Source of the DNA: Candidatus Excrementavichristensenella intestinipullorum | GTDB lineage: Bacteria > Bacillota > Clostridia > Christensenellales > Aristaeellaceae | Direction: 5' to 3' | Assembly (NCBI GenBank): GCA_018711685.1 | Contig: DVHZ01000145.1 | Coordinates: 1 to 35,918 of the forward strand | Length of the DNA: 35,918 bases | In this document: positions 3,613 through 19,806 of the stretch, piece by piece | How positions within the stretch are numbered: position 1 is the stretch's first letter | How the letters are laid out: the number at the start of each line of letters is the position of its first letter | Position numbers and translations under genes: made by a program | The notes under the pieces: generated by a model | Seen by the model: the letters and a program-made list of their open reading frames with translations, nothing else | Told to the model about the DNA's origin: nothing | Databases searched by the model: none

Positions 3613-3647
3613 CCTGGTATCTCCTCCCGCCGTTTCCGCTTTTCCCC

Positions 3648-3653
3648 AGTATA
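3648..3653 (-). promoter_or_regulatory. Candidate -10 element for the P-loop/SAD gene
   Basis: TATACT on the minus strand, about 36 bases upstream of the ATG. A weak TTTTCT lies 17 bases further upstream. The T-rich context supports it but the -35 does not match well. Confidence 0.35.
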
Positions 3654-3825
3654 ACATACCCTGTCCCAAAAGAAAACGGCTCCGTTCCTCACAACCTCCT
3701 TTCTGCGAAAAAAAATGCCCGGCGATGGGAAAGGCAGCTGCGTACCCGGGCCGAATATGCAACTTTTTGCCCCGTCCGTTCGTCTCTATGGAAAATGGCA
3801 ATTGACACCAGCAAAGGGTGATTGG

Positions 3826-5976: not shown

Positions 5977-5991
5977 TGGGGGCATTCTCAC

Positions 5992-6033
5992 AGCAAGGAG
6001 CGGGCGGACCGGCCCCTCCTTGCTTTTTCTTTC
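5992..6033 (+). terminator. Rho-independent terminator after the peptidoglycan-binding lipoprotein
   Basis: AGCAAGGAG (5992-6000) pairs with CTCCTTGCT (6016-6024), and the loop region is itself GC-rich. A T-rich tail (TTTTTCTTT) follows. It begins 16 bases after the stop codon. Confidence 0.8.
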
Positions 6034-6284
6034 CGCCGCCATCCAGCGCAGCGCCTATCGCCGCCGCGCCGTCTCAGGCCGTTGCCGCACCTACGCGCCA
6101 GCGAGGTGGGCGGTTCCAAGGGGGCGTCCCCTTGGCGGGGGTCCAGGGGCGAGGAGTCCCTGGCGGGGGGCCCGGGGGGCGGAGCCCCCCGGCCGCTGAA
6201 GCCCAGCCGCCAAGGCGGCTGGGCTTCAGCCAAAAAACTCCGCGCCCGCAGCTATCGCCGGTTCTTCCGGCGGCAAATCTTATC
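6034..6284. other. Gene-free stretch dominated by palindromes
   Basis: About 250 bases between the terminator and the next promoter. The first part (6034-6115) is GC-rich without recognisable coding or structure. The second part (6116-6230) is the palindrome cluster listed separately. The remainder contains no gene. Confidence 0.6.
6116..6230. repeat. Cluster of four GC-rich palindromes (REP/MITE-like module)
   Basis: Four consecutive inverted repeats are present: CCAAGGGG/CCCCTTGG (6116-6135), CCAGGG/CCCTGG (6143-6163), CCGGGGGG/CCCCCCGG (6172-6192), and a perfect 17-base-pair stem GCTGAAGCCCAGCCGCC with an AA loop (6195-6230). The last is followed by CAAAAAA. Together they exceed what a terminator needs, and a full terminator already lies upstream. 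They look like an intergenic repeat family, but copy number cannot be judged from this window. Confidence 0.7.
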
Positions 6285-6313
6285 TTGCAATCCCCCACGG
6301 GTTGCGCTACAAT
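6285..6313 (+). promoter_or_regulatory. Promoter for the ACT/UPF0210 operon
   Basis: TTGCAA (6285-6290) and TACAAT (6308-6313) are spaced by exactly 17 bases, about 40 bases before the start codon of the ACT-domain gene. Confidence 0.75.
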
Positions 6314-6352
6314 GGGTCAGATCGTTTCATCATGGAATGGAGGGAATTGGCT

Positions 6353-6634
6353 ATGCCGGCACAATCCAAGGCCGTGGTCACGGTGCTGGGGTTTGACCGC
6401 AAGGGCATCATCGCCCACGTGTCCACCGTGCTGTTCCAGCGGGGCGTAAATATTCTGGATATCTCCCAAACGGTGCTGGACGGATATTTCAATATGGTCA
6501 TGATGGTGGATATCTCCGAACCCACCTGCTCCTTCACCCAGCTGGCGGACGACCTGAACGCCCTGGGCGAGGAACAGGGGCTTCAAATCCGCATTCAAAA
6601 GAGCGAGATCTTTGAAGCCATGCATCACATATAA
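6353..6634 (+). CDS. ACT domain-containing protein (UPF0237 type)
   Basis: A 93-residue protein consisting of one ACT ligand-binding domain: [19 protein letters not shown] begins the first strand and helix, and a second strand-helix repeat follows with [13 protein letters not shown] domains usually bind amino acids and act as regulatory modules. The frame is open from TTG 6302, but GGAGGG at 6339-6344 is correctly spaced for ATG 6353. The next gene, a UPF0210 protein, begins 14 bases later. This pairing is widely conserved in Bacillota and suggests the ACT protein regulates or assists that partner. The ligand is unknown. Confidence 0.9.
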
Positions 6635-6648
6635 GGCAGGTGACGGTC

Positions 6649-8001
6649 ATGATCACATCGGGAGAAATCCTCGAAACCCTGCACATGATCGACCAGGAAA
6701 AGCTGGACGTGCGCACCATCACCATGGGGATCTCCCTGTTCGGGTGCGTGTGCGATGACGAAAAGCGCCTGGCCAGCCGGGTCTATAGCCGCATCGCCAC
6801 CCAGGCGGAACACCTGGTGCGGGTAGGCGAGGAAATCGAAAGGGATTTCGGCGTACCCATCGTAAACAAGCGCATCTCGGTAACGCCCATCTCCCTGATC
6901 AGCGGCGCCATCCGGGACCCGCTGCCTCTGGCCGAAGCTCTGGACAAGGCAGCCCGGCAGACCGGGGTCAACTTTATTGGCGGCTATAGCGCCCTGGTGC
7001 AAAAGGGCATGACCCGGGCCGACCAAGCCCTGATCGCCTCCCTGCCCCAGGCTCTCTCGGAAACCGAATTTTTGTGCGGCTCGGTCAATGTGGCCACCAC
7101 CCGTGCGGGCATCGACATGGACGCGGTAAAGCTGCTGGGCCAAGCCATCGTGGACCTGGCCCAGCGCACCAAGGCCCAGGATGGACTGGGCTGCGCCAAA
7201 CTGGTGGTGTTCGCCAACGCGGTGGAGGACAACCCCTTTATGGCCGGCGCCTTCCACGGCCCCGGCGAGGGGGACTGCGCGGTAAACGTGGGCGTCAGCG
7301 GCCCGGGTACCGTAAAACAGGCCCTGGAAAAGGTAAAGGGCGCGCCCTTCGACGTGGTGGCGGAAACAGTAAAACGCACCGCCTTCCGCATCACCCGGGT
7401 GGGCCAGCTGGTGGCCCGGGAGGCCGCCCGGCGGCTGGGCGTGGATTTCGGCATCGTGGACCTGTCCCTGGCGCCCACCCCGGCCATGGGGGACTCGGTG
7501 GCCCACATCCTGGAGGAAATGGGCCTGGAGCGCTGCGGCACCCACGGCTCTACCGCAGCCCTGGCCCTGCTCAACGACGCGGTGAAAAAGGGCGGCGTCA
7601 TGGCCTCCTCCCACGTGGGCGGGCTGTCCGGCGCCTTCATCCCCCTCAGCGAGGACATCGGCATGATCGAGGCCGCCCAGGTGGGCGCCCTGACCCTGGA
7701 TAAGCTGGAGGCCATGACCTGCGTGTGCTCGGTGGGCCTGGATATGATCGCCGTGCCCGGCGATACCCCCGCCTCCACCATCTCCGCCATCATCGCCGAC
7801 GAAGCGGCCATCGGCGTAGTGAACAACAAGACCACCGCGGTGCGCATCATCCCCGCCCCGGGCAAAAAGGTGGGGGATTCAGTGGAATTCGGCGGGCTGC
7901 TGGGCCGCGCCCCCATCATCCCGGTACACCCCTTCTCCTCGGAGGCCTTCGTGGCCCGGGGCGGCCGCATCCCCGCCCCCCTTCACAGCCTGCGCAATTG
8001 A
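6649..8001 (+). CDS. UPF0210 (PFL-like, DUF711) family protein
   Basis: A 450-residue cytosolic protein of the UPF0210 family, whose fold has been related to the pyruvate formate-lyase/ribonucleotide reductase barrel. The biochemical function is not established. Recognised from its N-terminal segment ([23 protein letters not shown]), glycine-rich internal segments and the C-terminal [26 protein letters not shown]. Length is normal and the frame is intact. GTG 6640 could open the frame, but AGGTG at 6638-6642 serves ATG 6649 with normal spacing. It is co-transcribed with the ACT-domain gene. Confidence 0.88.
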
Positions 8002-8024
8002 GCCCAATCCGGTCCTACAATCAC

Positions 8025-8057
8025 ATGCGCCCGCCTCCACAACCGAGGCGGGCGCAT
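8025..8057 (+). terminator. Strong hairpin after the UPF0210 gene, probable terminator
   Basis: ATGCGCCCGCCTC (8025-8037) pairs perfectly with GAGGCGGGCGCAT (8045-8057) around a seven-base loop, 24 bases after the stop codon. The following CCCGTTTC is a poor T tract, so termination strength is uncertain. Confidence 0.55.
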
Positions 8058-8335
8058 CCCGTTTCTGCGCCCGGCGAAGCCGGACGGCTTAAGGCGACTG
8101 CCGGGTGCGCCATGGCTGCGTCCATATCTTGGCTGGCATCGTTAGACAGGAGCGGCCTGGTCAAATCTCGCCCATGCCCTTTGCCCGGCGCCCTTCGCCT
8201 ACAGCACGCCGGGGAATATCCCCCTGGATGAGGGCGCAGCGGCGGTTTTTCGCCTCGTATCGCCCAATTTCTTTCCGGTTACAAATAAAGGTGACAGGGG
8301 ATGGACATGCTAAAAGGGCGAGGAGGAGAAAGACC
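8058..8335. other. Gene-free leader region upstream of the small helical protein
   Basis: This 278-base stretch has no convincing coding frame; the open frame reading through it lacks a ribosome site and resembles no family. It contains a short GCCCGGCGAAGCCGGACGGC inverted repeat near 8070-8090. Near its right end is a sporulation-type promoter candidate, listed separately. Confidence 0.5.
8283..8312 (+). promoter_or_regulatory. Candidate SigF/SigG-type promoter
   Basis: AAATA (8283-8287), 18 bases, then CATGCTA (8306-8312). The -10 fits the forespore CATnnTA pattern and the -35 matches four of five positions of GHATR. A start about seven bases downstream would leave room for the AGGAGGAG ribosome site at 8321-8328. 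This is a motif match only. Confidence 0.25.
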
Positions 8336-8764
8336 ATGGATGGCAACGAAGAGCTCTTAACCTATATCCACCAAAACGCCCAAATGGGCGTACGTACCAT
8401 CGAACACCTTTTGACCCTGGTGGAGGAGGACCGGCTTACTCGCCAACTGCGCTCCCAACGGGATGGTTATCAGCACTTTCAGCGTAGGGCGAAAGAACAG
8501 CTGCGCCTTCTGGGCCGGGACCAGGAAGGCCTGAGCCCCCTGGAAAAGGCCAAGACCTACCTGATGATCCAGATGGACACCCTGACGGACCGCAGCAGCG
8601 CCCATATCGCCGAAATGCTGATTACCGGCAGCAACATGGGCATCCTGGACGCGGCCAAGCGCATCCGCCAATACCCCCACGCCCGGGGGGACGTAGTGGC
8701 TCTAGTCAAGGGACTATCCGCCTTTGAAGAGGATAACGTGCAAAAATTGAAGGCTTTTTTATAA
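8336..8764 (+). CDS. Small all-helical conserved protein, function unknown
   Basis: A 142-residue soluble protein with no signal peptide. The sequence reads as several amphipathic helices (NEELLTYIHQNAQMGVRTIEHLL; an Arg/Glu-rich middle; EKAKTYLMIQMDTLTDRSSAHIAEMLI; a C-terminal helix ending KLKAFL). This suggests a ferritin-like or four-helix-bundle fold. I recall similar uncharacterised proteins in Clostridium, with the segment around SSAHIAEMLITGSNMGI conserved, but know no assigned function. ATG 8336 is set by AGGAGGAG at 8321-8328 with seven-base spacing. It stands alone between a plus-strand operon and a minus-strand operon. A forespore-type promoter candidate precedes it, which would hint at sporulation. 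Confidence 0.75.
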   Translation: MDGNEELLTYIHQNAQMGVRTIEHLLTLVEEDRLTRQLRSQRDGYQHFQRRAKEQLRLLGRDQEGLSPLEKAKTYLMIQMDTLTDRSSAHIAEMLITGSNMGILDAAKRIRQYPHARGDVVALVKGLSAFEEDNVQKLKAFL

Positions 8765-8810
8765 TGTAATGAGGGCTGCGGCAATCGTCCTTCCTGTTCT
8801 CATAACGGCG

Positions 8811-8836
8811 AAAAAGCCCTTGCCCAGCCCAAGGCC
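8811..8836 (-). terminator. Candidate terminator for the minus-strand four-gene operon
   Basis: On the minus strand GCCTTGGGCTGGGCAAGGGC folds into a stem with one bulge and is followed by TTTTT (plus strand 8815-8811). It lies about 140 bases past the GNAT stop codon. Another inverted repeat, GCCACCT/AGGTGGC at 8868-8888, lies between but has no T run. Confidence 0.4.
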
Positions 8837-8975
8837 ACCTTTTCCCCCCTTTGTATTGACAAGCCGGGCCACCTCGTTCACAGGTGGCTCTCTTGGTTTG
8901 CCGGGACGCTATGAAAAGAATTTTCCCACCCTTGCCGAATTCTGACCAAAGGACCGCTTTTTTCCACCGCCAGGG

Positions 8976-9788
8976 CTAGGGTTCGTACCAAACCAGCAAC
9001 CATTGCCGGTCCGGGAGGGCTTGATAGCCGCACTTCGCCAGCACCCGGCTGGGCGGCGCATTGCCTTGGGCCACCATGCTCAAACCCTGACGGCCGCAGC
9101 TGCGCGCCAAACGGCACAGATATGCCAAGGTGGCTTGGGCCAGTCCCTTGCCCCGCATGGCCGGGTCTACGGCGGCGGAACCAATGTACAAATAGCTGGG
9201 GGACATGGCCTCCACCGCAGTGGTCATACAGGGCTGGCCTTGATACCTTCCCAAATACATGCCCTCTGGCGGCTGCATAACGCGGGCTATAGCCTGAAAA
9301 TGGTCCGGCTCCAGGCGTTCATCCTGGACCTGATTAAAGAGGCGGGCGTACTGCACAAAGCCCTCCTGGTCCTGCGGCAGTAGGCGTTCAAAGGTAAACG
9401 CTTGGGGCCATAGCTGGGGCAGGGGGCCCCGCTGCACCGCCAGTTGTTCGATCAGGGCATAATGATAGGTTTTGTCCCGCACCATGCTGTCCAAAGTCAG
9501 GGCGGGCTCCAGGGGCGTGGCATACAGCCGCGCCACTCGATGCTTGGACACCAGCGCGGAAAAGGGCTGTAATGCGCCCTCGTCCTCCAGCAGGGCGCAG
9601 GCCATGCCGCTGGCATACAGCGCCAGCACCGAATCCCCCCAGCGGTAGTACAGGCCGCTGCGGGGGTTCTTCGGGGTAAACACCATGCCGCCGGCCTCCA
9701 GATTGGCCAGCATGAGGAAAGCATCCAGCTCCCGCCGGGCCAGATGCGCCCGCAATTCCTCCCGATGCTCAGGCGACAGTGGAACCAT
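8976..9788 (-). CDS. GNAT-family N-acetyltransferase
   Basis: A 270-residue protein with a C-terminal GNAT domain that would transfer an acetyl group from acetyl-CoA to an amine. The acetyl-CoA-binding motif A appears as IGSAAVDPAMRGKGLAQATL, roughly residues 205-225, followed by a YLCRLARSCG helix and a C-terminal NAPPSRVLAKCGY segment typical of the fold. The N-terminal half (about 1-130) is less conserved and may bind the substrate. The start ATG 9788-9786 lies inside the end of the MFS fusion gene (20-base overlap) with a G-rich ribosome site, so translation is probably coupled. It is the last gene of the four-gene operon. The substrate is unknown; a product or substrate of the ligase encoded in the same operon is a natural guess. 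Confidence 0.85.
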   Translation of the reverse strand: MVPLSPEHREELRAHLARRELDAFLMLANLEAGGMVFTPKNPRSGLYYRWGDSVLALYASGMACALLEDEGALQPFSALVSKHRVARLYATPLEPALTLDSMVRDKTYHYALIEQLAVQRGPLPQLWPQAFTFERLLPQDQEGFVQYARLFNQVQDERLEPDHFQAIARVMQPPEGMYLGRYQGQPCMTTAVEAMSPSYLYIGSAAVDPAMRGKGLAQATLAYLCRLARSCGRQGLSMVAQGNAPPSRVLAKCGYQALPDRQWLLVWYEP

Positions 9789-12702
9789 GGCCGCCCCCCT
9801 TGTCTTTTCGTCCAGCCACCAGATAGACGGGCAGCAGCACCACGCTGCTCAGACCGATAGCCGCTACCCCCAGCCCAGCCCCCAGGGTGAGGGCGAAGCC
9901 GAACAGGAAGGGGGCGGCGGTTTGGGCGATATTCTCCACCATCGAGAATATGCCCATGGCCTTGCCTGTACCCAACCGCTCTACCGCGCTTAGGCCGGAA
10001 TAGTAAATGCTCTGGCCGGAGAAGCCGAAGCTGTCGAACAGGCTGAGCAGTACCACCGCCACCACCGCCATGGCCATGGAGGGGGACAGGGCAAACCACA
10101 GGAAGACCGCCGCGTAGAGCAGGTTGGCCGCCGCGTTGGTCATAAAGCCGCCGAAGGTGCGCATCATGAATCGGGTGAGCCCCGGCCCAAATCCCACCAC
10201 GATGAGCCCGGCCAGCAGATAGAACCGGCCGATATCGGCCTCCCCCATGCCGTTCATGTCGGCGTACAGGGGGAAGAAATAGTACAGGAAGTAGGAACAC
10301 ACCGTATAGGGCAGGAACGCGCACAGGAAGAAGGACCACACCTTCCGGTCCAGCAAGAACCGCCCCGTGCCGATGCCCCCGTTCTCGCAGGGGCGCTGGC
10401 GCAGCGCCACTTCCTTGGGCACGAACAGCGCCGCAAATACCGTCATGCCCACCAGCATCAAGGCGGCCAGCAGGTAAATATTGCCATAGCCCAGCCAGCC
10501 CACCAGCTGGGAGCCCAGCACGGTGCCGATGTTCACCCCCGCCGTCATCCCCGTGTTGTAGCCTGTAAACGCTTCGCTGCGGACTTGCTCCTGCTGGCCC
10601 GCCGAGGCCAGGGCGTTCAGGCTCACCGCGCTTAGGCCCATGCCCACGCCGGAGACCAGCCGCCCCAGGATCAGCATACCAAAGGACAAGCTCAGGCCAA
10701 TGGCGGCAAAGGACCCGGCGATAATCAGGCAGCCCAGCATCAGGGTGCGCCGCACCCCCAGCCGGTTCATCATATAGCCCCCCACCACCCCGAACACCGA
10801 CGTGGTGAGCAGGGAAGCGGAAACCGGGATGGCCACCGCCACGCTCTGGGGCAGCCCCCACAGGGGGGTATACAGCCGGCTGGCCAATATGGCCACAAAG
10901 GCGCTCTGCAGGCTGCACGCCACAAAGGATAGGAAGGCCAAGGGCCGCAGCGCCCGCGCCTGGGCCAATCCCGCGTCCCCGGCGCGGCGGGCCCGGAGGA
11001 ACCCGCCAAACGCCTCCAGCTCGTTATAGGTCATGAACAGAATGACCAGCAGGGTGAGAACGGTCATGAGCAGCCCCGTGATGGTGGCGTCGTTGCGGGC
11101 CCGTACCGTGTAGGAATTGACGCCCACCTCGATGATGGCGACCACCTCGCCGCTGCTGTCCCGGATAGGGGTCACCGAGAAGGACCAGTCGCCGGTCTCG
11201 TCGGAGTAGGTCTCGTAGTTCATCTGAATGCCCTGGCCGTAGTTGTAGATCTGGGTATCCGAGCCCTGATGGGGCCGGGGCTGGAGCTGGAACATCTTGT
11301 ACTCCCCGGTGGAGTCGATGAGGGTCACCCCGTAGACCTGGTCCGTGGTGTACAGCACGTAGTAGTATTCCAGCTGGCTGTCCTTCACGCTGACCAGCAG
11401 CTGGTTGAGCTGGGACTCCACGTATTGATAGTCCTCGTTCTGGTAATCGTCTATATCCCGAATGCGGGTGATGGCGTCCCCCACCGGCAGCTGCGCCGCC
11501 AGGTAGGACAGGCTGGACAGGTTGTCCATGACCATCTGGTTGGTGCTCTGGCGTATGCTGGGCAGCAGCACCAGGGCGATGGCCACGAGCACCACCAACG
11601 CAAAGGAGCCCAGGCTGACCGCCAGCACCCCGCTTTCTCCCTTTTCCTTCTTGGGGCGCTTTTCCCGCCGCCGCAGCCCGGCCAGCAGTATCGCCGCTTT
11701 GACGAGCACCGCTACGGCCACCGCTCCGGCCAGAATCCATAGCGCCCACTGCTGCACCTGATAGCCCAGGGTGAACCGGGCCTGGGTCAGGTCGGCCACC
11801 ACCGCGCCCTGGGCATCCCTGTGAATCAAGTGGGTGGCCTCGTCCTGCTTGCTGGACAGGGCCACAAAGCCTCCTTGCGTCCCGTACAGCGCCGAATCAA
11901 TGCGCCGCTCCAGCAGGGGCTCGCCGGTTTCGGTGCGCTGTTCTATCCGCCCGTCTTCCAGGGCCAGCACCGTCCGGGCCGCCGTGTCCGACAGCAGCAG
12001 CAGCCCCGACTCGTCCACGCTGATCCAGCGGGCCAGGGAGCCGTGCTCCAGGTCGTCCAGGGATACGTACCCGTTGTATACCAGCTGGGGTCCCTCCGGC
12101 GTCACGTGGTACACGTCTCCGGTCATGGTGGCGAAATACAGGCTCTCATCCAGGGTGGAAATGGCGAATTCGCTCTCGTATAACCCGCTGTGGGCATAGG
12201 CGCTCACCAGCACCGGTTCCATATCCTCGATGCGGTACAGAAGGGTGCTCTCCCCCTCCGTCACCGCGAAATAGGCCCGCTCATCCGCCCGTACTGCCTC
12301 GATCTGACCCCCATCGCTTTCATATACCGTGCTCAGCACTTCGCCGGTTGCGCTGTCCAAGGCCAGCAACCGGTGGACGCCCTCCTGGGTGGTGTCTGCC
12401 AGATACAGCCGTCCTCCCTGAGCCGACAGCGCGGTGACCCGAAAAAAGCCCTTATCTTCGTTGGTTTGGCTATGCAGCTGGTAGAGCAGCTCCCCCTCCC
12501 CGCTGATCTTCAGCAGCCGGGACAGGCCCTGATCCACCACATAGTAATCCCCGGCCTGGTCCACGCAGGCGGCGTAGGGATTGCTGATGTCCAACACCTG
12601 TTGGGTGGGCCACGCGGTATAGGCCTGCCAGTTAAAGCCGGCAACCGCCGTGGCTATGGCCACCAACACAACCAACAGCCTATCCCGCGTCACCTTTTTC
12701 AT
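9769..12702 (-). CDS. Giant sensor-transporter fusion: beta-propeller, CACHE-like domain and MFS transporter
   Basis: A 977-residue membrane protein. Order seen: N-terminal transmembrane anchor (about 7-25); a long extracytoplasmic region of repeating YLAD/YVVD/LLLLSD strands that looks like an NHL/YncE-type beta-propeller (about 30-325); a transmembrane helix (about 333-357); a basic loop (RRREKRPKKEKGE); another helix (about 378-400); an extracytoplasmic CACHE/PAS-like domain (about 405-545, with YYYVLYTTDQVYG and SVTPIRDSSGEVVAIIEVGV); another helix; then a 12-helix MFS transporter (about 585-970) with a motif-A-like GGYMMNRLGVRRTLMLG. The fusion suggests a transporter gated by, or coupled to, external sensing. 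ATG 12702-12700 was chosen for MKKVTRDRL plus anchor; ATG 12747 in the same frame also has a GAGGGG site and cannot be excluded. A 127-base gap separates it from the ligase gene, and it overlaps the GNAT gene. Confidence 0.8.
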   Translation of the reverse strand: MKKVTRDRLLVVLVAIATAVAGFNWQAYTAWPTQQVLDISNPYAACVDQAGDYYVVDQGLSRLLKISGEGELLYQLHSQTNEDKGFFRVTALSAQGGRLYLADTTQEGVHRLLALDSATGEVLSTVYESDGGQIEAVRADERAYFAVTEGESTLLYRIEDMEPVLVSAYAHSGLYESEFAISTLDESLYFATMTGDVYHVTPEGPQLVYNGYVSLDDLEHGSLARWISVDESGLLLLSDTAARTVLALEDGRIEQRTETGEPLLERRIDSALYGTQGGFVALSSKQDEATHLIHRDAQGAVVADLTQARFTLGYQVQQWALWILAGAVAVAVLVKAAILLAGLRRREKRPKKEKGESGVLAVSLGSFALVVLVAIALVLLPSIRQSTNQMVMDNLSSLSYLAAQLPVGDAITRIRDIDDYQNEDYQYVESQLNQLLVSVKDSQLEYYYVLYTTDQVYGVTLIDSTGEYKMFQLQPRPHQGSDTQIYNYGQGIQMNYETYSDETGDWSFSVTPIRDSSGEVVAIIEVGVNSYTVRARNDATITGLLMTVLTLLVILFMTYNELEAFGGFLRARRAGDAGLAQARALRPLAFLSFVACSLQSAFVAILASRLYTPLWGLPQSVAVAIPVSASLLTTSVFGVVGGYMMNRLGVRRTLMLGCLIIAGSFAAIGLSLSFGMLILGRLVSGVGMGLSAVSLNALASAGQQEQVRSEAFTGYNTGMTAGVNIGTVLGSQLVGWLGYGNIYLLAALMLVGMTVFAALFVPKEVALRQRPCENGGIGTGRFLLDRKVWSFFLCAFLPYTVCSYFLYYFFPLYADMNGMGEADIGRFYLLAGLIVVGFGPGLTRFMMRTFGGFMTNAAANLLYAAVFLWFALSPSMAMAVVAVVLLSLFDSFGFSGQSIYYSGLSAVERLGTGKAMGIFSMVENIAQTAAPFLFGFALTLGAGLGVAAIGLSSVVLLPVYLVAGRKDKGGGHGSTVA

Positions 12703-12829
12703 GGACACCCATCCTTTCCACCCAAATGGGCGGCCTGCGCCGCCCATGGCCCGCCCCTCTGGCGCACCCGCGCCGGGGGCGTTCTTTCGCCTCTCTCTGC
12801 GCCGGAGGCCTACCCTCCGCCGCCCCTAT

Positions 12830-14149
12830 TTATAGCAGTGCCGGGGACACCTCGGCCCGCTGCTCCAGCGCCTGGGCCAGCCCGTCCCGCCGGGCCGTGC
12901 GCACAAAGCGCCGGGCCGGACAATCCAGCATCCGGCTTCGCGCCAGCAGGGGCGCCAGGAAGGCTTCCTCCCCCCAGCCTCGGGCCTTCAGCCCTTCCAG
13001 GGACAGCTCCAGGAGCGCCCGCAGCCACCCCTCCAGCTCCGCCTCGTCCACCCCGGCCACGTCGCCGCTCAGCGCCGCCCGGTCCAGGAGTTGGTTGGCG
13101 TCCTGCATCCCGTGGGCCTGGTAAAAGTTCTGGCACAGGGCCAAGGCGTCGTCCAGCCGCTCCCTGAGTCCCAGGGTAAAGGCGCTGGGCATGAACGCCT
13201 CGCCAAAGGACTGGGCGCACAGGGTGCGATACTCCACCGTGCCGTACCGGGTGGTCACCACGTTGCGCTCAATGTCGAAATCCCATATATCCTCTTCCCG
13301 GGCCTCGTAGGCCGGGTCGGAAAAATAATCCTCAAAGGGCACCGGCTGGAACACCTGCCGCTGCCCGTCCCTGTGCCGGGAGAACATGCAGATCTTCCGG
13401 TACTCCCGGACGTAGTCCTCCAGGCTGCGGGCCCACAAGGGCTGCGCACCGGTCATGCCCAGGGCGTTTAGCCGGGAAGAGCGGTACAGCCGGTGGCGCA
13501 TACACAGGTAATCCAACCCGCCCAGCCGGGCGGGGGAGTTGGAGAACAGCAGCATGTTGGCCAAATCGGCGTAGGTAAGCATACGCATCAAGGTGGGCAG
13601 TTCCTGGGGCGTGGTGTTGAAGTGGATCTGCTCCGAGGCGATGCGCACATAGAAATCCAGGTATTTGGCCCGGGCGCCGGCGTAGCCGTGGGCCAACACC
13701 TGGCCGATGGCCAATGTCAAATCCGCCGGCACCTTGGGCGCCAGGGGCGCACCCTCCGTGGGGTTAAAGCCCAGGCCGCACAGCATGTGCCCATGGGCCC
13801 GCAGGTAGCCCTGGACCGCCTCTAACGCCTGATAAAACCGGCGGTAGAGGCGCACCATGTCCGGTGCGCTGGTGGTGACGTACTCCAGCACCGCGTAACA
13901 GGTGTCAAAGGTTACCGCGTTGCCCTGTCCGTCCAACGCCTTCAGGGGCAGTTCTCCCGCGAAGCTTTGCCGGTCAAAGCCAATCCCCGCCAGCACGGGA
14001 AACAGCCCTCGAATTACCTCCATGTCGATAGGGCCTCCCCGGACGCGCAGAATGGGAAACTCCAGTTCCAGCCCCACGTGGTTCTTTTTGTTGGCGGCAA
14101 TGCCTTCCGTCAAATACCGGGTCAATAACCCGTCGATATCAAAACCCAT
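12830..14149 (-). CDS. Glutamate-cysteine ligase-like enzyme (GCS2/carboxylate-amine ligase superfamily)
   Basis: A 439-residue soluble enzyme. The segment VGLELEFPI at 25-33 is the metal/ATP-binding Glu-x-Glu motif of the GCS family. The C-terminal GTVEYRTLCAQS (about 303-314) matches the late Glu-x-Arg signature. Family members join the gamma-carboxyl of glutamate (or another carboxylate) to an amine using ATP. No glutathione synthetase or ergothioneine gene is nearby, so classic glutathione synthesis is not supported; a gamma-glutamyl or related amide product is inferred. The ATG is 25 bases after the phosphatase stop, with AAGGGAG as ribosome site. Placement between a phosphatase and a transporter fusion is unusual for this family. 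Confidence 0.8.
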   Translation of the reverse strand: MGFDIDGLLTRYLTEGIAANKKNHVGLELEFPILRVRGGPIDMEVIRGLFPVLAGIGFDRQSFAGELPLKALDGQGNAVTFDTCYAVLEYVTTSAPDMVRLYRRFYQALEAVQGYLRAHGHMLCGLGFNPTEGAPLAPKVPADLTLAIGQVLAHGYAGARAKYLDFYVRIASEQIHFNTTPQELPTLMRMLTYADLANMLLFSNSPARLGGLDYLCMRHRLYRSSRLNALGMTGAQPLWARSLEDYVREYRKICMFSRHRDGQRQVFQPVPFEDYFSDPAYEAREEDIWDFDIERNVVTTRYGTVEYRTLCAQSFGEAFMPSAFTLGLRERLDDALALCQNFYQAHGMQDANQLLDRAALSGDVAGVDEAELEGWLRALLELSLEGLKARGWGEEAFLAPLLARSRMLDCPARRFVRTARRDGLAQALEQRAEVSPALL

Positions 14150-14174
14150 ACCCTCTACTCCCTTCGCTTCGGCC

Positions 14175-15821
14175 TCAATGGCGAAGCCGCAGCGCCAGCA
14201 TGGTGATGTCGTCCGCCTGAGGTGCGCCGTCCGCGTACCGGTCCAGTTCCTCCATAACGCTATCCAATATCCGCTTTACGGGCATGTGCTCCCCATCCTC
14301 TAGGGCGTTCAGCGCGTCCAGCAACCGCTGCTCACCGTACAGCTCCTGGGCCGGGTTCAGCGCCTCGGTGACCCCGTCGGTATACAGGAATATCTGATCC
14401 CCCGGGTTGAACTCCAGGGTAAACTCCCTGTACTTGACCCCCTCCATGGCGGCCATGGGCAGGCTACGGCGCATGGATACGTAGGCAAACTGCCCGCCTT
14501 TGCGGCGGATCAGGGGCGGATTGTGCCCGGCGTTGACGCAGGTCAAGGTATGGGCCTTCAGATCCAGCAGCATCACCAGGCTGGTGACGAACATGCTGGC
14601 TTCATTGCCCTCGCACAGCTGGCTTGAGGCGGTGCTCACCACCTCGCCGAGAGGCTTGCCCTCCAGCGCCTGGTTCTTGAGCAACGCCTTGGCGATCATC
14701 ATGAACAGCGCCGCCGGCACGCCCTTGCCCGACACATCCGACACCGTGAACAGCAGATGGTCCTGGTCCAGCAGGTAGAAGTCGTAGAAATCGCCCCCTA
14801 CCTCTTTGGCCGGGCGGATGGATGCGTAGATGTCGAAATCGTCTCTCTCCGGGAAAGGCGGGAAGAGGCGGGGCAGCACGCTCATCTGAATATTGGTGGC
14901 CACGTCCAGCTCGGTGGCGATGCGCTGCTTCTCCGCGGTTACCTTCTCCAGGTTGCGCATGTAGCTCTCCACCTGACCGGCCATGTGGGTAAAGGCGTTG
15001 GATAATTGCTCGATCTCATCGCCGGTGTGAATCTGGGCGTCGCTGTACACCAGGTTTTCAGAATCCTGGGCGTAGGCGTTTACGCTTTGGGTCAGCTTGC
15101 CGATTTGGTCCACCACCCGCCGCTTCAGATACACCAGGTACAAAAAGACCAGCACGAAGACCGTGCCCACCGACAGCCCCAGGCTCTTGAGCAGAAAGGC
15201 CCTCAGTTCCTCCTGTACCTCGTGCATGGACACGTCCGCGCCCATCAAGGCTACGCTCCGACCTCCGGCGTCCAGCACCGGGGCGAACACCGTGCCCACG
15301 TACCCCAATTCGCTGTCCGACACCAAGATGTCCTCCACCGGCTGGCCGGTCTCAAAGGCGCGCATCAGGTGATCGTTGGTGCCCGGATAGGCGTCTATCT
15401 GGCCCAGAGCGCATAGGTCTTGAGGATCCTCGCCCTCTACCCGGGCATCGTAGATGTACAAGTAGCCTTCCTCGGAGGGATAGAACAGGTACAGGTACTG
15501 CATCCCCGTGTATTCCTTCACCACATCCATGGCGTGGAAGGCGCCGGCGTAGTCTTCATCCTCCGTCAAGCTGGACAGGTATCGCTCCGCCGTCTCCGCC
15601 TCAATAAGGTCCGCCGCTGTTTGGGCGGCGGATAGGGCAATGCGGTAATAAAAATCCATATATTTCGCCTGTATGGATTGATACCCCACCAGACACACCC
15701 CGCCGCTGAGCAGCAGGGACAACAGCAAAAACCCCAGGATAAACTTTTGGCTTAGGTTCAGGCTGACCCGGCGAGGCTTAGACGCCGCCCCATAGTCCAG
15801 CACAGCCATCCCTCCCTTCAC
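14175..15821 (-). CDS. Membrane-sensor SpoIIE/PP2C-family serine phosphatase (RsbU-like)
   Basis: A 548-residue protein. First transmembrane helix about 26-47; extracytoplasmic CACHE-like sensor about 50-208 (MQYLYLFYPSEEGYLYIYD and YVGTVFAPVLDAGGRSVALMGAD); second helix about 212-233; HAMP-like linker; coiled segment RIATELDVATNIQMSVLP; SpoIIE/PP2C catalytic domain about 320-548. Metal-binding motifs are VGGDFYDF (341-348), DVSGKGVPAA (362-371), a later YTDGVTEA and ADDITMLALR near the end. Such proteins usually dephosphorylate an anti-sigma antagonist, but no STAS or RsbW-like partner is visible here. The start is ambiguous: GTG 15821 (AAAGGA site), ATG 15809, or GTG 15803 (AAGGGAGGG site). 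It heads the four-gene operon. Confidence 0.88.
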   Translation of the reverse strand: MKGGMAVLDYGAASKPRRVSLNLSQKFILGFLLLSLLLSGGVCLVGYQSIQAKYMDFYYRIALSAAQTAADLIEAETAERYLSSLTEDEDYAGAFHAMDVVKEYTGMQYLYLFYPSEEGYLYIYDARVEGEDPQDLCALGQIDAYPGTNDHLMRAFETGQPVEDILVSDSELGYVGTVFAPVLDAGGRSVALMGADVSMHEVQEELRAFLLKSLGLSVGTVFVLVFLYLVYLKRRVVDQIGKLTQSVNAYAQDSENLVYSDAQIHTGDEIEQLSNAFTHMAGQVESYMRNLEKVTAEKQRIATELDVATNIQMSVLPRLFPPFPERDDFDIYASIRPAKEVGGDFYDFYLLDQDHLLFTVSDVSGKGVPAALFMMIAKALLKNQALEGKPLGEVVSTASSQLCEGNEASMFVTSLVMLLDLKAHTLTCVNAGHNPPLIRRKGGQFAYVSMRRSLPMAAMEGVKYREFTLEFNPGDQIFLYTDGVTEALNPAQELYGEQRLLDALNALEDGEHMPVKRILDSVMEELDRYADGAPQADDITMLALRLRH

Positions 15822-15832
15822 GATTGTCCTTT

Positions 15833-15841
15833 ATTATAGCA
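15833..15841 (-). promoter_or_regulatory. Extended -10 promoter of the phosphatase/ligase/transporter operon
   Basis: TGCTATAAT on the minus strand, a perfect TATAAT with an extended TGn. The -35 position is only a T run. It lies so close to GTG 15821 that transcription would start about at that ribosome site, which favours the downstream GTG 15803 as the real start codon. Confidence 0.6.
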
Positions 15842-15985
15842 AAAATTCTTGGGGAAAAAAAGAGGGAACCATTTTACAAATTCCGCGCAGAATCCTACAA
15901 ATTTTCCTCTATTCCGGCGCGGCCCCTATTCGGCCCGCGTCCGGACCGCTTTCCCCTCTTCTTCCCCCGATAGGCGGAAATTAAC

Positions 15986-16014
15986 TTGACATATACCCTC
16001 TCCTTTGGTAAAAT
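15986..16014 (+). promoter_or_regulatory. Strong promoter for rplJ-rplL
   Basis: A perfect TTGACA (15986-15991), 17 bases, then TAAAAT (16009-16014). It precedes a leader of about 170 bases. Confidence 0.88.
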
Positions 16015-16034
16015 GACCAAGTGCTATGAAAATA

Positions 16035-16100
16035 GTCCGTGCCATAGACAGCGGGTGCGCAGCATAAGGCCTTTGGGCCGCCCGCCGAGGCGCAATGATG
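16035..16100 (+). ncRNA. Ribosomal protein L10 leader
   Basis: The leader contains GTGCCATAGACAGCGGGTG (starting 16040) and, on the other side, CCCGCCGAGGCGCAA (16081-16095). GTGCC (16040-16044) can pair with GGCGC (16089-16093) and GCGGG (16051-16055) with CCCGC (16081-16085). This leaves the conserved ATAGACA and CGAG internal bulges of the L10 leader. In other bacteria L10(L12)4 binds this element and represses its own operon. It lies between the rplJ promoter and the attenuator hairpin, as expected. Confidence 0.8.
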
Positions 16101-16119
16101 GATGAAATATTGCATTTCG

Positions 16120-16152
16120 TCGCCTTGCGCTGCTGTGCGCAGGGCGATTTTT
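16120..16152 (+). terminator. Attenuator terminator in the rplJ leader
   Basis: TCGCC-TTGCGC (16120-16130) pairs with TGCGCA-GGGCGA (16136-16147), followed by TTTTT. It lies 41 bases before the rplJ start, so it probably ends transcription when L10 binds the upstream leader. Confidence 0.7.
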
Positions 16153-16192
16153 CTGGCGTCCGACGCGGGACGAGAAAAGAGGTGCAAAGACA

Positions 16193-16723
16193 TTGTCCAA
16201 AAATATTGAACTGAAAAAGACGGTCGTGGCCGAGATCAAGGAAAAGTTCCAGCAGGCCCACTCCGCGGTGCTTCTGGACTACCGGGGGCTCACCGTGGCG
16301 GAAGTCACCGAGCTGCGCAACCTGTGCCGTGCTCAGGGCGTGGAATACGTGGTACTGAAGAACACCATGATCGAACTGGCCGTCAAGGAGCTGGGCATCA
16401 CCGGGCTGGACGAGCATTTGAAGGGCCCCACCGCCGTGGCCTTCGGCATGAAGGACGCGGTGGCCCCCGCCAAGGTGCTCACCGACTTCATCAAGAAGGT
16501 GAAAAAGACCACCGTCAAGTGCGGCGTGGTAGACGGCCAGGTGCTGGACGCTGCGGGCGTGCAGGCGCTGAGCGAGCTGCCGCCCAAGGAGGTCCTCATT
16601 GCCAAGATGATGGGCAGCTTGAACGCCCCCATCACCAACTTCGTGGGCGTGCTGTCCGCTACCCTGCGCTCTCTGGTATACGCCATCGAGGCGGTGCGCA
16701 AGCAGAAGGCCGGAGAGGAATAA
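16193..16723 (+). CDS. rplJ: 50S ribosomal protein L10
   Basis: A 176-residue L10, the stalk base that carries L7/L12 dimers on the large ribosomal subunit. The N-terminal rRNA-binding domain contains VLLDYRGLTVAEVTELR (about 28-44) and VEYVVLKNTMIELA. The C-terminal helix that binds L12 ends with LVYAIEAVRKQKAGEE. The start codon is TTG 16193, set by AGAGGTG at 16178-16184. No in-frame ATG gives a complete N-terminus. It is the first gene of a two-gene unit with rplL and is controlled by the L10 leader. Confidence 0.97.
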   Translation: MSKNIELKKTVVAEIKEKFQQAHSAVLLDYRGLTVAEVTELRNLCRAQGVEYVVLKNTMIELAVKELGITGLDEHLKGPTAVAFGMKDAVAPAKVLTDFIKKVKKTTVKCGVVDGQVLDAAGVQALSELPPKEVLIAKMMGSLNAPITNFVGVLSATLRSLVYAIEAVRKQKAGEE

Positions 16724-16756
16724 AAAACGAATTGATCAGTTAAGGAGGAGCATATC

Positions 16757-17134
16757 ATGAATCGCGAAGAGATCATTTCCGCTATTGAGTCCATGACCGT
16801 TCTGGAGTTGGCCGAGTTGGTAAAGGCCCTGGAGGAGAAGTTTGGCGTATCCGCCGCCGCCCCCGTAGCCGTGGCTGCCGGCCCCGCCGCTGCCGCCCCC
16901 GCTGAGGCCGCCGAAGAGAAGACCGAGTTCGACGTGGTGCTGAAGGAAGTCGGCCCCGAGAAGATCAAGGTCATCAAGGTTGTGCGCGAAGTCGTGTCCG
17001 GCCTGGGCCTGAAGGAAGCCAAGGACCTGGTGGACGGCGCCCCCAAGACCCTGAAGGAAGGCGTGTCCAAGGAAGACGCCGAGAAGATCAAGAAGCAGTT
17101 CGCCGACGTGGGCGCCACTGTGGAGATCAAGTAA
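16757..17134 (+). CDS. rplL: 50S ribosomal protein L7/L12
   Basis: A 125-residue L7/L12 that forms the mobile stalk recruiting translation GTPases. It has an N-terminal dimerisation helix pair ([20 protein letters not shown]), an Ala/Pro-rich hinge (about 33-54) and the conserved C-terminal domain ([43 protein letters not shown]). It is preceded by a strong AAGGAGGAG site and lies 33 bases after rplJ. Neither rplK-rplA upstream nor rpoB-rpoC downstream is present; two terminators follow directly. Confidence 0.98.
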
Positions 17135-17143
17135 TGCTGCATC

Positions 17144-17206
17144 CCCGGACTTCAGCGCTTCCCCTCCACCGGAAGGGAAACGGCGCTTAAGTCCGGGACA
17201 ATTTTT
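17144..17206 (+). terminator. First terminator after rplL
   Basis: A long stem pairs CCCGGACTT...AGCGC (from 17144) with GCGCTTAAGTCCGGG (to 17197), followed by TTTTT at 17202-17206. A small inner hairpin lies in the loop. Confidence 0.7.
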
Positions 17207-17244
17207 AACCGGCGCGGCCCTGCAAAAGGCCGCGCCGGTTTTTT
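17207..17244 (+). terminator. Second, canonical terminator after rplL
   Basis: AACCGGCGCGGCC (17207-17219) pairs with GGCCGCGCCGGTT (17228-17240), followed by an uninterrupted T run to 17244. It is a textbook rho-independent terminator directly after the first one. Confidence 0.92.
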
Positions 17245-17461
17245 CGCCCGCTCCCGCCTGTGGCGGACCTCCCCTTCCCGTTCAGCTTGCAACGTGCCGG
17301 GCTAGCGCGGTAACCCCCGCCTCCCCCCTTCCCCGCTTCTCAAGGCTGGTTTCCGAAAAAGGGCGGGCAGAAAGCTGGGTCAAGCATCTGAAAATGGCAG
17401 TCTCTATGTGGGTATCCTGCCCCCAATCGCCCTTCAGGCCATCCCGACCTGGGGCGGAGGG
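17245..17461. other. Gene-free stretch between the rplL terminators and the end of phoR
   Basis: About 217 bases between converging transcription units. I see no coding frame with a ribosome site, and no obvious terminator for the phoR strand. Confidence 0.5.
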
Positions 17462-19126
17462 TTAGGCCAGGCGGCTGGGCGGGAAATTGATCTCTATCCG
17501 GGTGCCTTGGCCCAGGTCGCTCTTGAGGGAGATCTTTGCCCCTAGCAGGGCGGCGGCGTGCTTGACGATGGACAGGCCCAGGCCGGTGCCTCCCACCGCC
17601 TTGGAGTGGCTCTTGTCTACCCGGTAGAAGCGCTCGAATACCCGGGCCTGGTCCTCGGGAGCGATGCCGATGCCATTGTCGGATACGGCCAGGGTGCCCG
17701 CGCCGGTGTGGATGCGGGCCCAGCCTCCCGGGCGGCCGTATTTTACCGCGTTGTCCGCCAAGTTGTACACCATTTCTTCCAGCATGGCGGGCTCGCCCCG
17801 CACCTTTAGGGGCTCGCCCTCCGCCTGCAGGTCGATTCCCGCCTTGGCGGCCTGGTCCTCCAGCCGGCGCACCACCTTGGCGGCCAGCTCGCCCATGTCC
17901 ACCGTGGCCTCGCGGGCGCCGGGGGCGCCTTCGTCCAGCCGGGACAGGCGGATGATGTCCTCGATGAGCCGGATCAGCCGGGCCGCCTCGTCGTGGATGC
18001 GCTGGGCGAACCCCCGCATATCCGCCTCCGGGGCCATGCCGCTGGCCATGATCTCCGCGTAGCCCAGGATGGCGGTGAGGGGGGTTTTCAGCTCGTGGGA
18101 CACGTTGGCGGAAAACTCCCTGCGGCTCTGCTCCGACAACATGCCGTCGGTGACGTCCAGGATCAGCAGCACCATGCCGTTCAACTGGCCGCCGCTTCGG
18201 ACCGGGCTGGCTACCAGCTGGTAATAGCGCCCTTCATAGGCCATCACCTCCCGGCCCGAATGGCCGCTCTCCCGGGCGGTCTCCAGGGCGCGGATGAGGG
18301 CCATGTCCCGGCACAGGCTCAGGATATGCCCTCCCGCAGGCGGCTGTCCTTCGACGTGAAACAGCCGGGCGGCGCTCTTGTTGATGGACAGCACGTCCAA
18401 CGACTTGTTCAGCACCACCAGTCCCTCCGCCATGTGGCCGGTGATGGCGGCAAACTGGGTCTGCCGCTGGGTCAATTCCTCCATCTGCCGGGCGATCTGC
18501 TGGTTCTTGTGTTCCAGCTGAGTGAGCAGCGGAGAAAGCTCCTCGTACACGTTGTTGTCCAGGGGATGGTGCAGGTCCAGGTTGTTCACCGGCCGCACAA
18601 TCGCCCTGGTCACCCGCCCGGCGGCCCAAACCGCCAGGGAGCTGATGGCCAGGAAGAACAGGGCCAGCAGGCCCAGCATGCCCATGAGGATGGAGAACAG
18701 GCTGGTGCGGGTCAGGGCCAACCGCAGCACCGAGCCGTCCTCCAGGCGCACGGCGCTGTAAAAGGTGGTCTCGCCCAGGGTGGCGCTCCACCGCTCGCTA
18801 TGGCCCAGGCCGCTGGCCAGCGCCTGCTGGATTTCCGGGCGGTCCAGATGGCTGCCCATCAGGTTGGCCCGGCTCTGGCTGTCAAAGCGCACCGTTCCGT
18901 CCTGGGATACCCAGGTGATGCGGGTTTTCCCCCCCAGCGCGTCCAGATAGGCCCGCTGGTCCTCCACCTGATTGAGCGCGGCGGCCACATAGCTCAGCTC
19001 GCTGTCCAGCCGTTCCTTATAGTCCCCGGCAAAGGTAAAATAGGCGGCCAGCAGGCTGAGCAGGGCAAACAGCACCACCGAACCCAGGGCTAGGGTCAGC
19101 ATAGCCCGATAGATGCGTCTTTTCAT
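17462..19126 (-). CDS. phoR: Phosphate-sensing sensor histidine kinase PhoR
   Basis: A 554-residue membrane histidine kinase. Transmembrane helices at about 11-31 and 145-168 flank a short extracytoplasmic sensor. A HAMP-like region and a PAS domain (about 225-325, MAEGLVVLNKSLDVLSINK) follow. The HisKA domain has the phospho-acceptor His344 in NVSHELKTPL. The ATPase domain shows DNAVKYG, DNGIGIAPEDQARVFERFYR and GGTGLGLSIVK. The true start is ATG 19126-19124, which overlaps the phoB stop by four bases (ATGA), rather than the upstream open frame. It is the last gene of the pst-pho operon, so it is predicted to phosphorylate PhoB under phosphate limitation and to be held in check by PstSCAB and PhoU. 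Confidence 0.93.
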   Translation of the reverse strand: MKRRIYRAMLTLALGSVVLFALLSLLAAYFTFAGDYKERLDSELSYVAAALNQVEDQRAYLDALGGKTRITWVSQDGTVRFDSQSRANLMGSHLDRPEIQQALASGLGHSERWSATLGETTFYSAVRLEDGSVLRLALTRTSLFSILMGMLGLLALFFLAISSLAVWAAGRVTRAIVRPVNNLDLHHPLDNNVYEELSPLLTQLEHKNQQIARQMEELTQRQTQFAAITGHMAEGLVVLNKSLDVLSINKSAARLFHVEGQPPAGGHILSLCRDMALIRALETARESGHSGREVMAYEGRYYQLVASPVRSGGQLNGMVLLILDVTDGMLSEQSRREFSANVSHELKTPLTAILGYAEIMASGMAPEADMRGFAQRIHDEAARLIRLIEDIIRLSRLDEGAPGAREATVDMGELAAKVVRRLEDQAAKAGIDLQAEGEPLKVRGEPAMLEEMVYNLADNAVKYGRPGGWARIHTGAGTLAVSDNGIGIAPEDQARVFERFYRVDKSHSKAVGGTGLGLSIVKHAAALLGAKISLKSDLGQGTRIEINFPPSRLA

Positions 19127-19806
19127 GGCGTATTCCCCCGAAAGCGGTAGCCCAGGCCCCGGATGGTTTCGATGCGGTCGGCGCAGTCCCCCAGCTTTTG
19201 CCGCAGGGTTTGGATGTGTACGTCCACGGTACGGGACCCGCCGAAGTAGTCCTGGCTCCACACCTCTTTGAGCAGCGTCTCCCGATCGAAGGCGGTCTGG
19301 GGATGCTCCATGAGGAAGCGCAGCAGCTCGTATTCCTTCAGGGTCAGGTTCACCGGCTTGCCCTCTGCGGTGACGGTATGCTTCATGTGGTCCAGGCTCA
19401 CCCCGCCGGCGGCCAGGGTCTGGGCGGGCTGGCTGACGCCGCTGCGGCGCAGCACCGCCTTGATCCGAGCGATCAGCTCCATCACCCCAAAGGGCTTGAT
19501 GACGTAGTCGTCCGCGCCCTGGTCCAGCCCTTCCACCCGGTCGGACTCGGCGCCCCGGGCGGTGAGGATGATCACCGGAATGGCCATGGTGCGCTGGTGG
19601 CTCTTCAGCTTTTGCAGCAGGGCCAATCCGTCGTCCTGGCCGGGCAGCATGATGTCCAGCAGGATCAGGTCGGGGAGGGGGCCATGGGCCATGGCCTTCT
19701 CAAAGGCGCTCCCCTCGGGGAAGCCCATGGCCTCGTATCCGGTCTGCTTCAGGGCATAGACCAGCAGGTCCCGAATGTTTACGTCATCCTCCACGTAATA
19801 GATCAT
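19123..19806 (-). CDS. phoB: Phosphate regulon response regulator PhoB/PhoP
   Basis: A 227-residue OmpR-family response regulator. The receiver domain has acidic residues at the start (VEDD), the phospho-acceptor Asp51 in LLDIMLP, a conserved Thr in ILTARG and Lys in VIKPFG. The C-terminal winged-helix DNA-binding domain includes LTLKEYELLRFLMEHP, SRTVDVHIQTLRQKLG and IRGLGYRF. It overlaps both neighbours through ATGA junctions, so it is co-translated with phoU and phoR. It is assigned to phosphate control because of the operon. The Gram-positive name phoP would also be acceptable. Confidence 0.93.
   Translation of the reverse strand: MIYYVEDDVNIRDLLVYALKQTGYEAMGFPEGSAFEKAMAHGPLPDLILLDIMLPGQDDGLALLQKLKSHQRTMAIPVIILTARGAESDRVEGLDQGADDYVIKPFGVMELIARIKAVLRRSGVSQPAQTLAAGGVSLDHMKHTVTAEGKPVNLTLKEYELLRFLMEHPQTAFDRETLLKEVWSQDYFGGSRTVDVHIQTLRQKLGDCADRIETIRGLGYRFRGNTP

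What the first reader, a model, noticed from the sequence alone, without database searches (positions are those of the whole stretch)
8976..15821. Four-gene operon joining a sensor phosphatase, a GCS-like ligase, a sensor-MFS fusion and a GNAT
Directly seen: four co-directional minus-strand genes with gaps of 25, 127 and -20 bases and one strong extended -10 promoter in front. Known: SpoIIE/PP2C proteins normally control sigma-factor partner switching; GCS2-type enzymes make gamma-glutamyl or related amides; GNATs acetylate amines; MFS proteins export or import small molecules. Inference: the cluster may make, modify and move a small gamma-glutamyl-type metabolite in answer to an external signal read by two CACHE-like sensors. 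No partner-switching proteins, glutathione synthetase or known pathway accompany it, so it does not match a described system I can name.
Basis: partly seen in the sequence, partly recalled or inferred. Interest (0 to 1): 0.75.

Follow-up and report, generated by a model that had tools for sequence, protein, structure and literature searches.

The report
Sensor phosphatase paired with sensor-transporter fusion
A gut-type Clostridia genome carries a four-gene unit whose conserved core is a membrane sensor phosphatase plus a transporter with its own built-in sensor; in other bacteria this pair, or the transporter alone, often sits beside bacteriocin-export or contractile-injection genes, which suggests an undescribed switch for secreted molecules or weapons.

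Summary
In detail: four minus-strand genes encode a SpoIIE phosphatase, a GCS2-like ligase, a propeller-CACHE-MFS fusion and a GNAT. Gaps are 25, 127 and -20 bases, with an extended -10 (TGCTATAAT) in front. The phosphatase start is more likely GTG 15803 than 15821. The four genes are not conserved as a set: the ligase has relatives in 3 of about 600 genomes searched, none beside a fusion or phosphatase in the DNA available. What recurs is the pair: 11 of 16 fusion loci carry an adjacent SpoIIE gene. The slots around the pair hold changing acyl- or amide-transfer enzymes. The sensor region of the fusion is homologous to that of the phosphatase (E about 1e-10). Nine loci lie next to NHLM/NHLP peptide-export (4) or eCIS genes (5); the window locus does not. 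Its genome holds one NHLM exporter and a STAS/RsbW pair, elsewhere; that RsbW is 47% identical to one beside a fusion in a Lachnospiraceae bacterium. Best reading: a signal-gated partner-switching phosphatase plus a ligand-reading MFS transporter that controls and moves a small amide-type compound. No description was found in the literature searched. Ligand, substrate, regulon and need for the ligase are inferred, not shown.

The parts
14175..15803 (-). CACHE-like/HAMP/SpoIIE (PP2C) membrane sensor phosphatase; likely start GTG 15803 (reader: 15821)
   Evidence: Pfam SpoIIE E 4.6e-50; all metal-ligand motifs GGDFYD, DVSGKG, TDG, DD kept; start judged from the Shine-Dalgarno position
12830..14149 (-). 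GCS2-like (plant-type glutamate-cysteine ligase-like) presumed amide ligase; variable member of the unit
   Evidence: PF04107 21.7 bits vs cut-off 21; nearest solved structures are plant-type GCL at E about 0.011; homologues with invariant E28, E30, H176, N178, E306, R308
9769..12702 (-). Beta-propeller / CACHE-like / MFS fusion (977 aa), sensor-transporter
   Evidence: MFS_1 E 1.5e-25; AlphaFold model mean pLDDT 74.5 with all-beta N-terminal domain about 36-310, alpha/beta domain about 408-530 and MFS 577-968; MFS part Z 38 to VMAT2 and 37 to NorA; sensor region homologous to the phosphatase sensor
8976..9788 (-). GNAT acetyltransferase-like protein, overlapping the fusion by 20 bases
   Evidence: Acetyltransf_1 and FR47 above cut-off; weak homologue standing alone in G017
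15833..15841 (-). Extended -10 promoter element TGCTATAAT
   Evidence: direct reading of the sequence; no good -35

Best explanation
The unit is a membrane signalling-and-transport module. Step 1 (anatomy shown, action inferred): the SpoIIE-type phosphatase reads an extracellular small molecule through its CACHE-like domain and passes the signal through HAMP to a PP2C domain with intact catalytic motifs. Step 2 (inferred): it dephosphorylates a STAS anti-anti-sigma protein, most likely that of the STAS/RsbW pair on contig C85, and so changes the output of an RsbW-type kinase, a sigma factor or another target. Step 3 (architecture shown, action inferred): the fusion carries a sensor homologous to the phosphatase's, plus a propeller, on a complete DHA1/NorA-like MFS transporter. 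It probably reads the same or a related ligand and exports (less likely imports) a small molecule when the ligand is present. Step 4 (inferred): the variable enzymes between and behind the pair (here a GCS2-like ligase and a GNAT; elsewhere LPG_synthase_C, ATP-grasp, other GNATs) make or modify an amine- or amide-type compound that is the cargo, the signal or a self-protection mark. Comparative context suggests that the module tunes release of secreted agents: peptide exporters (NHLM/NHLP) or contractile injection systems.
For: SpoIIE gene adjacent to the fusion in 11 of 16 fusion loci (window; L021, L022, L023, L030, L031, L033, L034, L040, L042, L094), with varying order and enzymes. The phosphatase sensor profile matches the sensor of the window fusion at E about 1e-10. 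The window phosphatase keeps every metal-ligand motif. Nine loci lie beside NHLM/NHLP exporters (L040, L042, L044, L094) or eCIS genes (L021, L030, L031, L033, L038), confirmed by curated models where tested; four NHLM links by chance would be about 3e-8 under a rough null. The own genome has an NHLM ABC1 above its cut-off and a STAS/RsbW pair whose RsbW is 47% identical to the one in fusion locus L042, against 18% to a second RsbW-like protein of the same genome on C118. The MFS part is a full transporter fold closest to NorA, SotB and VMAT. L094 and L042 put a binding-protein-like domain or a Bmp lipoprotein with the fusion, which points to ligand handling. The distant Vibrio relative of the ligase lies among ATP-grasp, aminotransferase and MFS genes.
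Against: The window locus itself is linked neither to NHLM nor to eCIS, and in G431 and G438 the NHLM exporter is on another contig. Genome-level co-occurrence is only suggestive (NHLM in 53 of 200 relatives). The window genome is an incomplete assembly and the cognate STAS protein is unproven. The fusion also occurs without SpoIIE (Spirochaete L039 and L041, L038, L044, plasmid L096). In the eCIS group the phosphatase has lost metal-ligand Asp residues, so the mechanism cannot be the same everywhere. No transcript or biochemical data.
Confidence: 0.45

Rival explanations
1. One reading: a true four-gene biosynthetic operon that makes a gamma-glutamyl-type metabolite (ligase), acetylates it (GNAT) and exports it (MFS) in answer to an external signal; all four proteins are needed.
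For: Tight co-directional spacing; an amide- or aminoacyl-transfer enzyme sits beside the fusion elsewhere (LPG_synthase_C in L022 and L040, ATP-grasp in L094); the Vibrio relative of the ligase lies in an amino-acid-type biosynthetic-looking cluster with ATP-grasp and MFS genes.
Against: No other genome with all four was found; ligase homologues lie away from the pair, and G438 holds both ligase and fusion on different contigs; PF04107 is only marginally met.
Confidence: 0.25
2. The fusion is not a working transporter but a receptor: the MFS barrel has become the membrane part of a ligand sensor that modulates the neighbouring phosphatase (or, in Spirochaetes, a cyclase).
For: The propeller and sensor part also occurs on a HAMP-guanylate cyclase paralogue directly beside a fusion (L041); the fusion usually lies with a signalling enzyme; sensor regions are homologous.
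Against: The MFS part is complete and aligns over its whole length to active transporters (Z 35-38).
Confidence: 0.2
3. Chance or loose neighbours: an ordinary stress-type sensor phosphatase and unrelated ligase, transporter and GNAT genes that share a strand.
For: A same-genus genome lacks ligase and fusion; the ligase and GNAT have no conserved partners.
Against: SpoIIE-fusion adjacency recurs in 11 of 16 loci across several families of Bacillota.
Confidence: 0.1

Closest known systems
RsbU/SpoIIE-type partner switching (sensor PP2C phosphatase, STAS protein, RsbW-type kinase)
   Same: membrane sensor plus PP2C domain with intact metal-ligand motifs; a STAS/RsbW pair exists in the genome
   Different: STAS and RsbW are not in the operon; the phosphatase is paired with a sensor-MFS fusion and with amide- or acyl-transfer enzymes
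NHLM/NHLP peptide (RiPP) export loci (TIGR03796/TIGR03797)
   Same: in four other genomes the fusion lies beside these exporters (with SpoIIE in three); NHLM loci of relatives often hold SpoIIE or RsbW genes
   Different: no exporter, precursor peptide or maturase was seen at the window locus; the genome's NHLM ABC1 is on contig C101
Extracellular contractile injection systems (eCIS)
   Same: in five Clostridia genomes the fusion lies directly beside eCIS genes
   Different: no eCIS_core was detected in the window genome; eCIS-linked phosphatases carry an extra C-terminal segment (HATPase-like, below the Pfam cut-off in L021) and have lost metal-ligand Asp residues
SiaA (SiaABCD, Pseudomonas)
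   Same: membrane sensor with HAMP and PP2C; best NCBIfam match
   Different: 87 bits against a cut-off of 700; no SiaB, SiaC or SiaD found at the locus
DHA1-type MFS exporters (NorA, SotB, VMAT)
   Same: complete MFS fold, Z 35-38
   Different: fused to an extracytoplasmic propeller and CACHE-like sensor

Membership tests
Partner-switching sensor phosphatase (RsbU/SpoIIE type) | PP2C/SpoIIE domain with metal-binding Asp residues | tested here: met
Partner-switching sensor phosphatase (RsbU/SpoIIE type) | STAS substrate and RsbW-type kinase available | tested here: inconclusive
   pair on C85 in the same genome, RsbW 47% identical to one beside a fusion; not shown to be cognate
NHLM/NHLP RiPP export locus | ABC1/ABC2 exporter genes at the locus | tested here: not met
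   no ABC1/ABC2 of this kind in the window; ABC1 present on C101 of the same genome
eCIS-associated locus | eCIS core and sheath genes nearby | tested here: inconclusive
   no eCIS genes recognised among the window frames; no PF13699 in the genome, but the control rang nowhere
GCS2 (PF04107) ligase | score above the curated cut-off | tested here: met
   21.7 bits vs 21, marginal
GCS2 (PF04107) ligase | gamma-glutamyl amide formation | not testable with these tools
   single-sequence fold failed (pLDDT 36)
MFS transporter | complete 12-TM MFS fold | tested here: met
CACHE sensor domain | score above a Pfam Cache cut-off | tested here: not met
   best hits E 0.01-0.07, below cut-off; homology of the two sensor regions to each other and the shape of the model are the support
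GNAT acetyltransferase | PF00583 above cut-off | tested here: met
   29.4 bits vs 20.7
SiaA | NCBIfam NF038263 cut-off | tested here: not met
   87.1 vs 700 bits

The most novel reading that the evidence does not exclude
The SpoIIE phosphatase and the propeller-CACHE-MFS fusion are a new class of two-part 'transceptor' switch: one ligand, read by two homologous sensors, at the same time opens a small-molecule transporter and resets a Ser-phosphorylation partner switch. Bacillota have recruited it repeatedly to control secreted agents (peptide exporters, contractile injection systems), each copy with its own acyl- or amide-transfer enzyme that makes the signal or the cargo.
Probability: 0.25. 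Interest if true: 0.75.

Novelty: new variant of a known kind. Interest (0 to 1): 0.52.

Why it matters
It links three things that are usually studied apart: partner-switching phosphatases, sensor-fused MFS transporters, and gene clusters for peptide exporters and contractile injection systems in gut-type Clostridia. If right, it gives a handle on what signal switches such clusters on, which is mostly unknown, and a marker protein (the fusion) for finding more of them.

Tried and rejected
A scan of genome contigs with the ligase alone found no relative, and viral contigs none. A single-sequence fold of the ligase was useless. The A2 hit in G325 is a CACHE histidine kinase, not a fusion. Genome-wide co-occurrence of fusion and NHLM: G000, G431, G437 and G438 all have NHLM and G051 has eCIS genes instead, but 53 of 200 relatives have NHLM, so this is only suggestive. 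PF13699 search in the own genome: negative but uncontrolled. Ten literature searches and one text search inside the eCIS survey PMC8213781 (phosphatase, MFS, acetyltransferase, sensor: no mention) found no description; the library lacks most subscription papers. A tree of the fusions does not group the window clearly with either the NHLM or the eCIS kind; in the phosphatase tree it lies on the NHLM side. The PDB structure matches listed cover only the MFS part of the fusion, so the folds of the propeller and CACHE-like parts were not tested against known structures.

Full report
OBSERVATION. The window is a whole contig (C135, 35.9 kb) of a 206-contig assembly of 2.68 Mb, about 90% complete. 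Gaps are 25, 127 and -20 bases. The phosphatase start at 15821 would overlap its own ribosome-binding site; GTG 15803, seven bases behind AAGGGAGG, is likelier. The extended -10 TGCTATAAT lies at 15841-15833 with no clear -35. To the right are rplJ and rplL with an L10 leader, on the other strand.

DOMAINS. Pfam gives SpoIIE plus HAMP (HAMP just under its cut-off) for gene 1, GCS2 at 21.7 bits (cut-off 21) for gene 2, MFS_1 for the C-terminal part of gene 3, and GNAT for gene 4; CACHE hits are below cut-off. AlphaFold with 12 sequences gives the fusion a mean pLDDT of 74.5: an N-terminal all-beta domain (about 36-310, read as a beta-propeller), membrane helices, an alpha/beta CACHE-like domain (about 408-530) and a complete MFS barrel. 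The barrel matches VMAT2, NorA and SotB with Z 35-38; the other parts were not tested against known structures. A profile of the phosphatases matches, through its sensor part, the sensor region of the fusion (window: residues 363-557, E about 1e-10): the two membrane proteins share a homologous sensor.

CONSERVATION. The ligase was found in 3 of about 600 genomes of the order besides its own (44-46% identity). In G167 and G438 its neighbours are unrelated; in G457 the 3.5 kb contig shows only an LPG_synthase_C-like gene beside it. A same-genus genome, G396, lacks ligase and fusion. So the four-gene set is not conserved. The fusion, in contrast, was found in 15 further loci: by protein and profile searches, by a scan of 84,980 species genomes (which also re-found several of the same contigs) and on one plasmid.

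NEIGHBOURHOODS. SpoIIE next to the fusion: window, G051 (L021), G431 (L022), G438 (L023), G340 (L030), G313 (L031), L033, L034, L040, L042, G437 (L094): 11 of 16. Without SpoIIE in the visible DNA: L038, L044, plasmid L096 and two Spirochaetes; in one of these (L041) the next gene is a paralogue with HAMP and guanylate cyclase, so the sensor is a swappable module. Enzymes in the slots around the pair: GCS2-like and GNAT (window), LPG_synthase_C and GNAT (G431), LPG_synthase_C (L040), D-Ala-D-Ala-ligase-type ATP-grasp (G437), GNAT (eCIS group, L038). NHLM/NHLP exporter next to the fusion: L040, L042, L044, G437; curated TIGR03796 is passed in the first three and in G437, and TIGR03797 in L042 and L044 but just missed in L040. 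eCIS genes next to the fusion: G051, G340, G313, L033 (eCIS_core PF13699 tested in L033) and L038 (sheath PF04984). Under a rough null (67 NHLM matches in 200 relatives of about 2.8 Mb, 10 kb either side) four NHLM links among 14 loci has probability about 3e-8; loci are not fully independent and come from outside the order too.

THE OWN GENOME. It holds one NHLM ABC1 above cut-off, 0.5 kb from the end of contig C101, no detectable eCIS_core (uncontrolled negative), and on contig C85 a STAS/RsbW pair. That RsbW is 47% identical to the one beside SpoIIE, fusion and NHLM genes in L042 and only 18% identical to a second RsbW-like protein of the same genome on C118, which lies beside a STAS gene and a sigma-factor-like gene. 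This is the best available candidate for the target of the phosphatase, but it is inference.

CATALYTIC RESIDUES. The window phosphatase and those of the NHLM kind keep GGDFYD, DVSGKG, TDG and DD. All four eCIS-linked phosphatases examined have lost the Asp of DVSGKG and of TDG and are longer at the C-terminus; L021 shows a sub-threshold HATPase_c_2 match there. They may work differently. In the phosphatase tree the window lies on the NHLM side; in the fusion tree its place is unclear.

MECHANISM. Shown: domain architecture, homology of the two sensors, intact PP2C motifs, complete MFS fold, recurrent pairing, recurrent placement beside export or injection genes. Inferred: shared ligand, STAS substrate, direction of transport, role of the enzymes. 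The distant Vibrio relative of the ligase (23%) lies among alanine racemase, ornithine cyclodeaminase, ATP-grasp, MFS, GHMP kinase, aminotransferase and glyA genes, which fits a secondary-metabolism amide ligase but does not show it. The profile match to plant-type glutamate-cysteine ligase is weak (E about 0.011).

KNOWN OR NOT. Ten full-text searches found no paper that joins SpoIIE phosphatases with NHLM or eCIS loci, or describes a CACHE-MFS fusion; the eCIS survey PMC8213781 does not mention phosphatase, MFS, acetyltransferase or sensor in its text. The library is incomplete, so novelty is provisional. I rate it a new variant of partner-switching signalling.

Noticed in passing
L094 (G437:C7) 3487-19217: A RiPP-like cluster on one strand: NHLM ABC2 (ABC1 just beyond), radical SAM, PqqD-like, two HprK-like proteins, KamA-like lysine aminomutase, ATP-grasp, CACHE-MFS fusion with a C-terminal binding-protein-like domain, SpoIIE; looks like an undescribed product.
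   Followed up: partly
L041:9461-15192: Spirochaete tandem: a propeller-CACHE-MFS fusion followed by a paralogue that ends in HAMP and guanylate cyclase.
   Followed up: partly
L096:14768-17785 (plasmid CP141730.1): A fusion annotated only as MFS transporter on an Oscillospiraceae plasmid, without SpoIIE, near rpsI/rplM copies.
   Followed up: no
L097:116-10513 (Vibrio europaeus plasmid): Unnamed biosynthetic-looking cluster with a GCS2-family ligase, ATP-grasp, MFS, GHMP kinase, aminotransferase and alanine racemase.
   Followed up: no
L031:3598-6800: Two tandem proteins with a nearly identical eCIS-core-like N-terminal half and different C-terminal parts, just before the fusion gene.
   Followed up: no
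window 3715-5976: Long secreted-looking protein with about seven peptidoglycan-binding-type repeats joined by Pro/Thr linkers; a similar protein lies near the ligase homologue in G438 (L007 13371-15923).
   Followed up: no
window 16024-16161: L10 ribosomal leader (RF00557) directly beside the divergent SpoIIE promoter.
   Followed up: no
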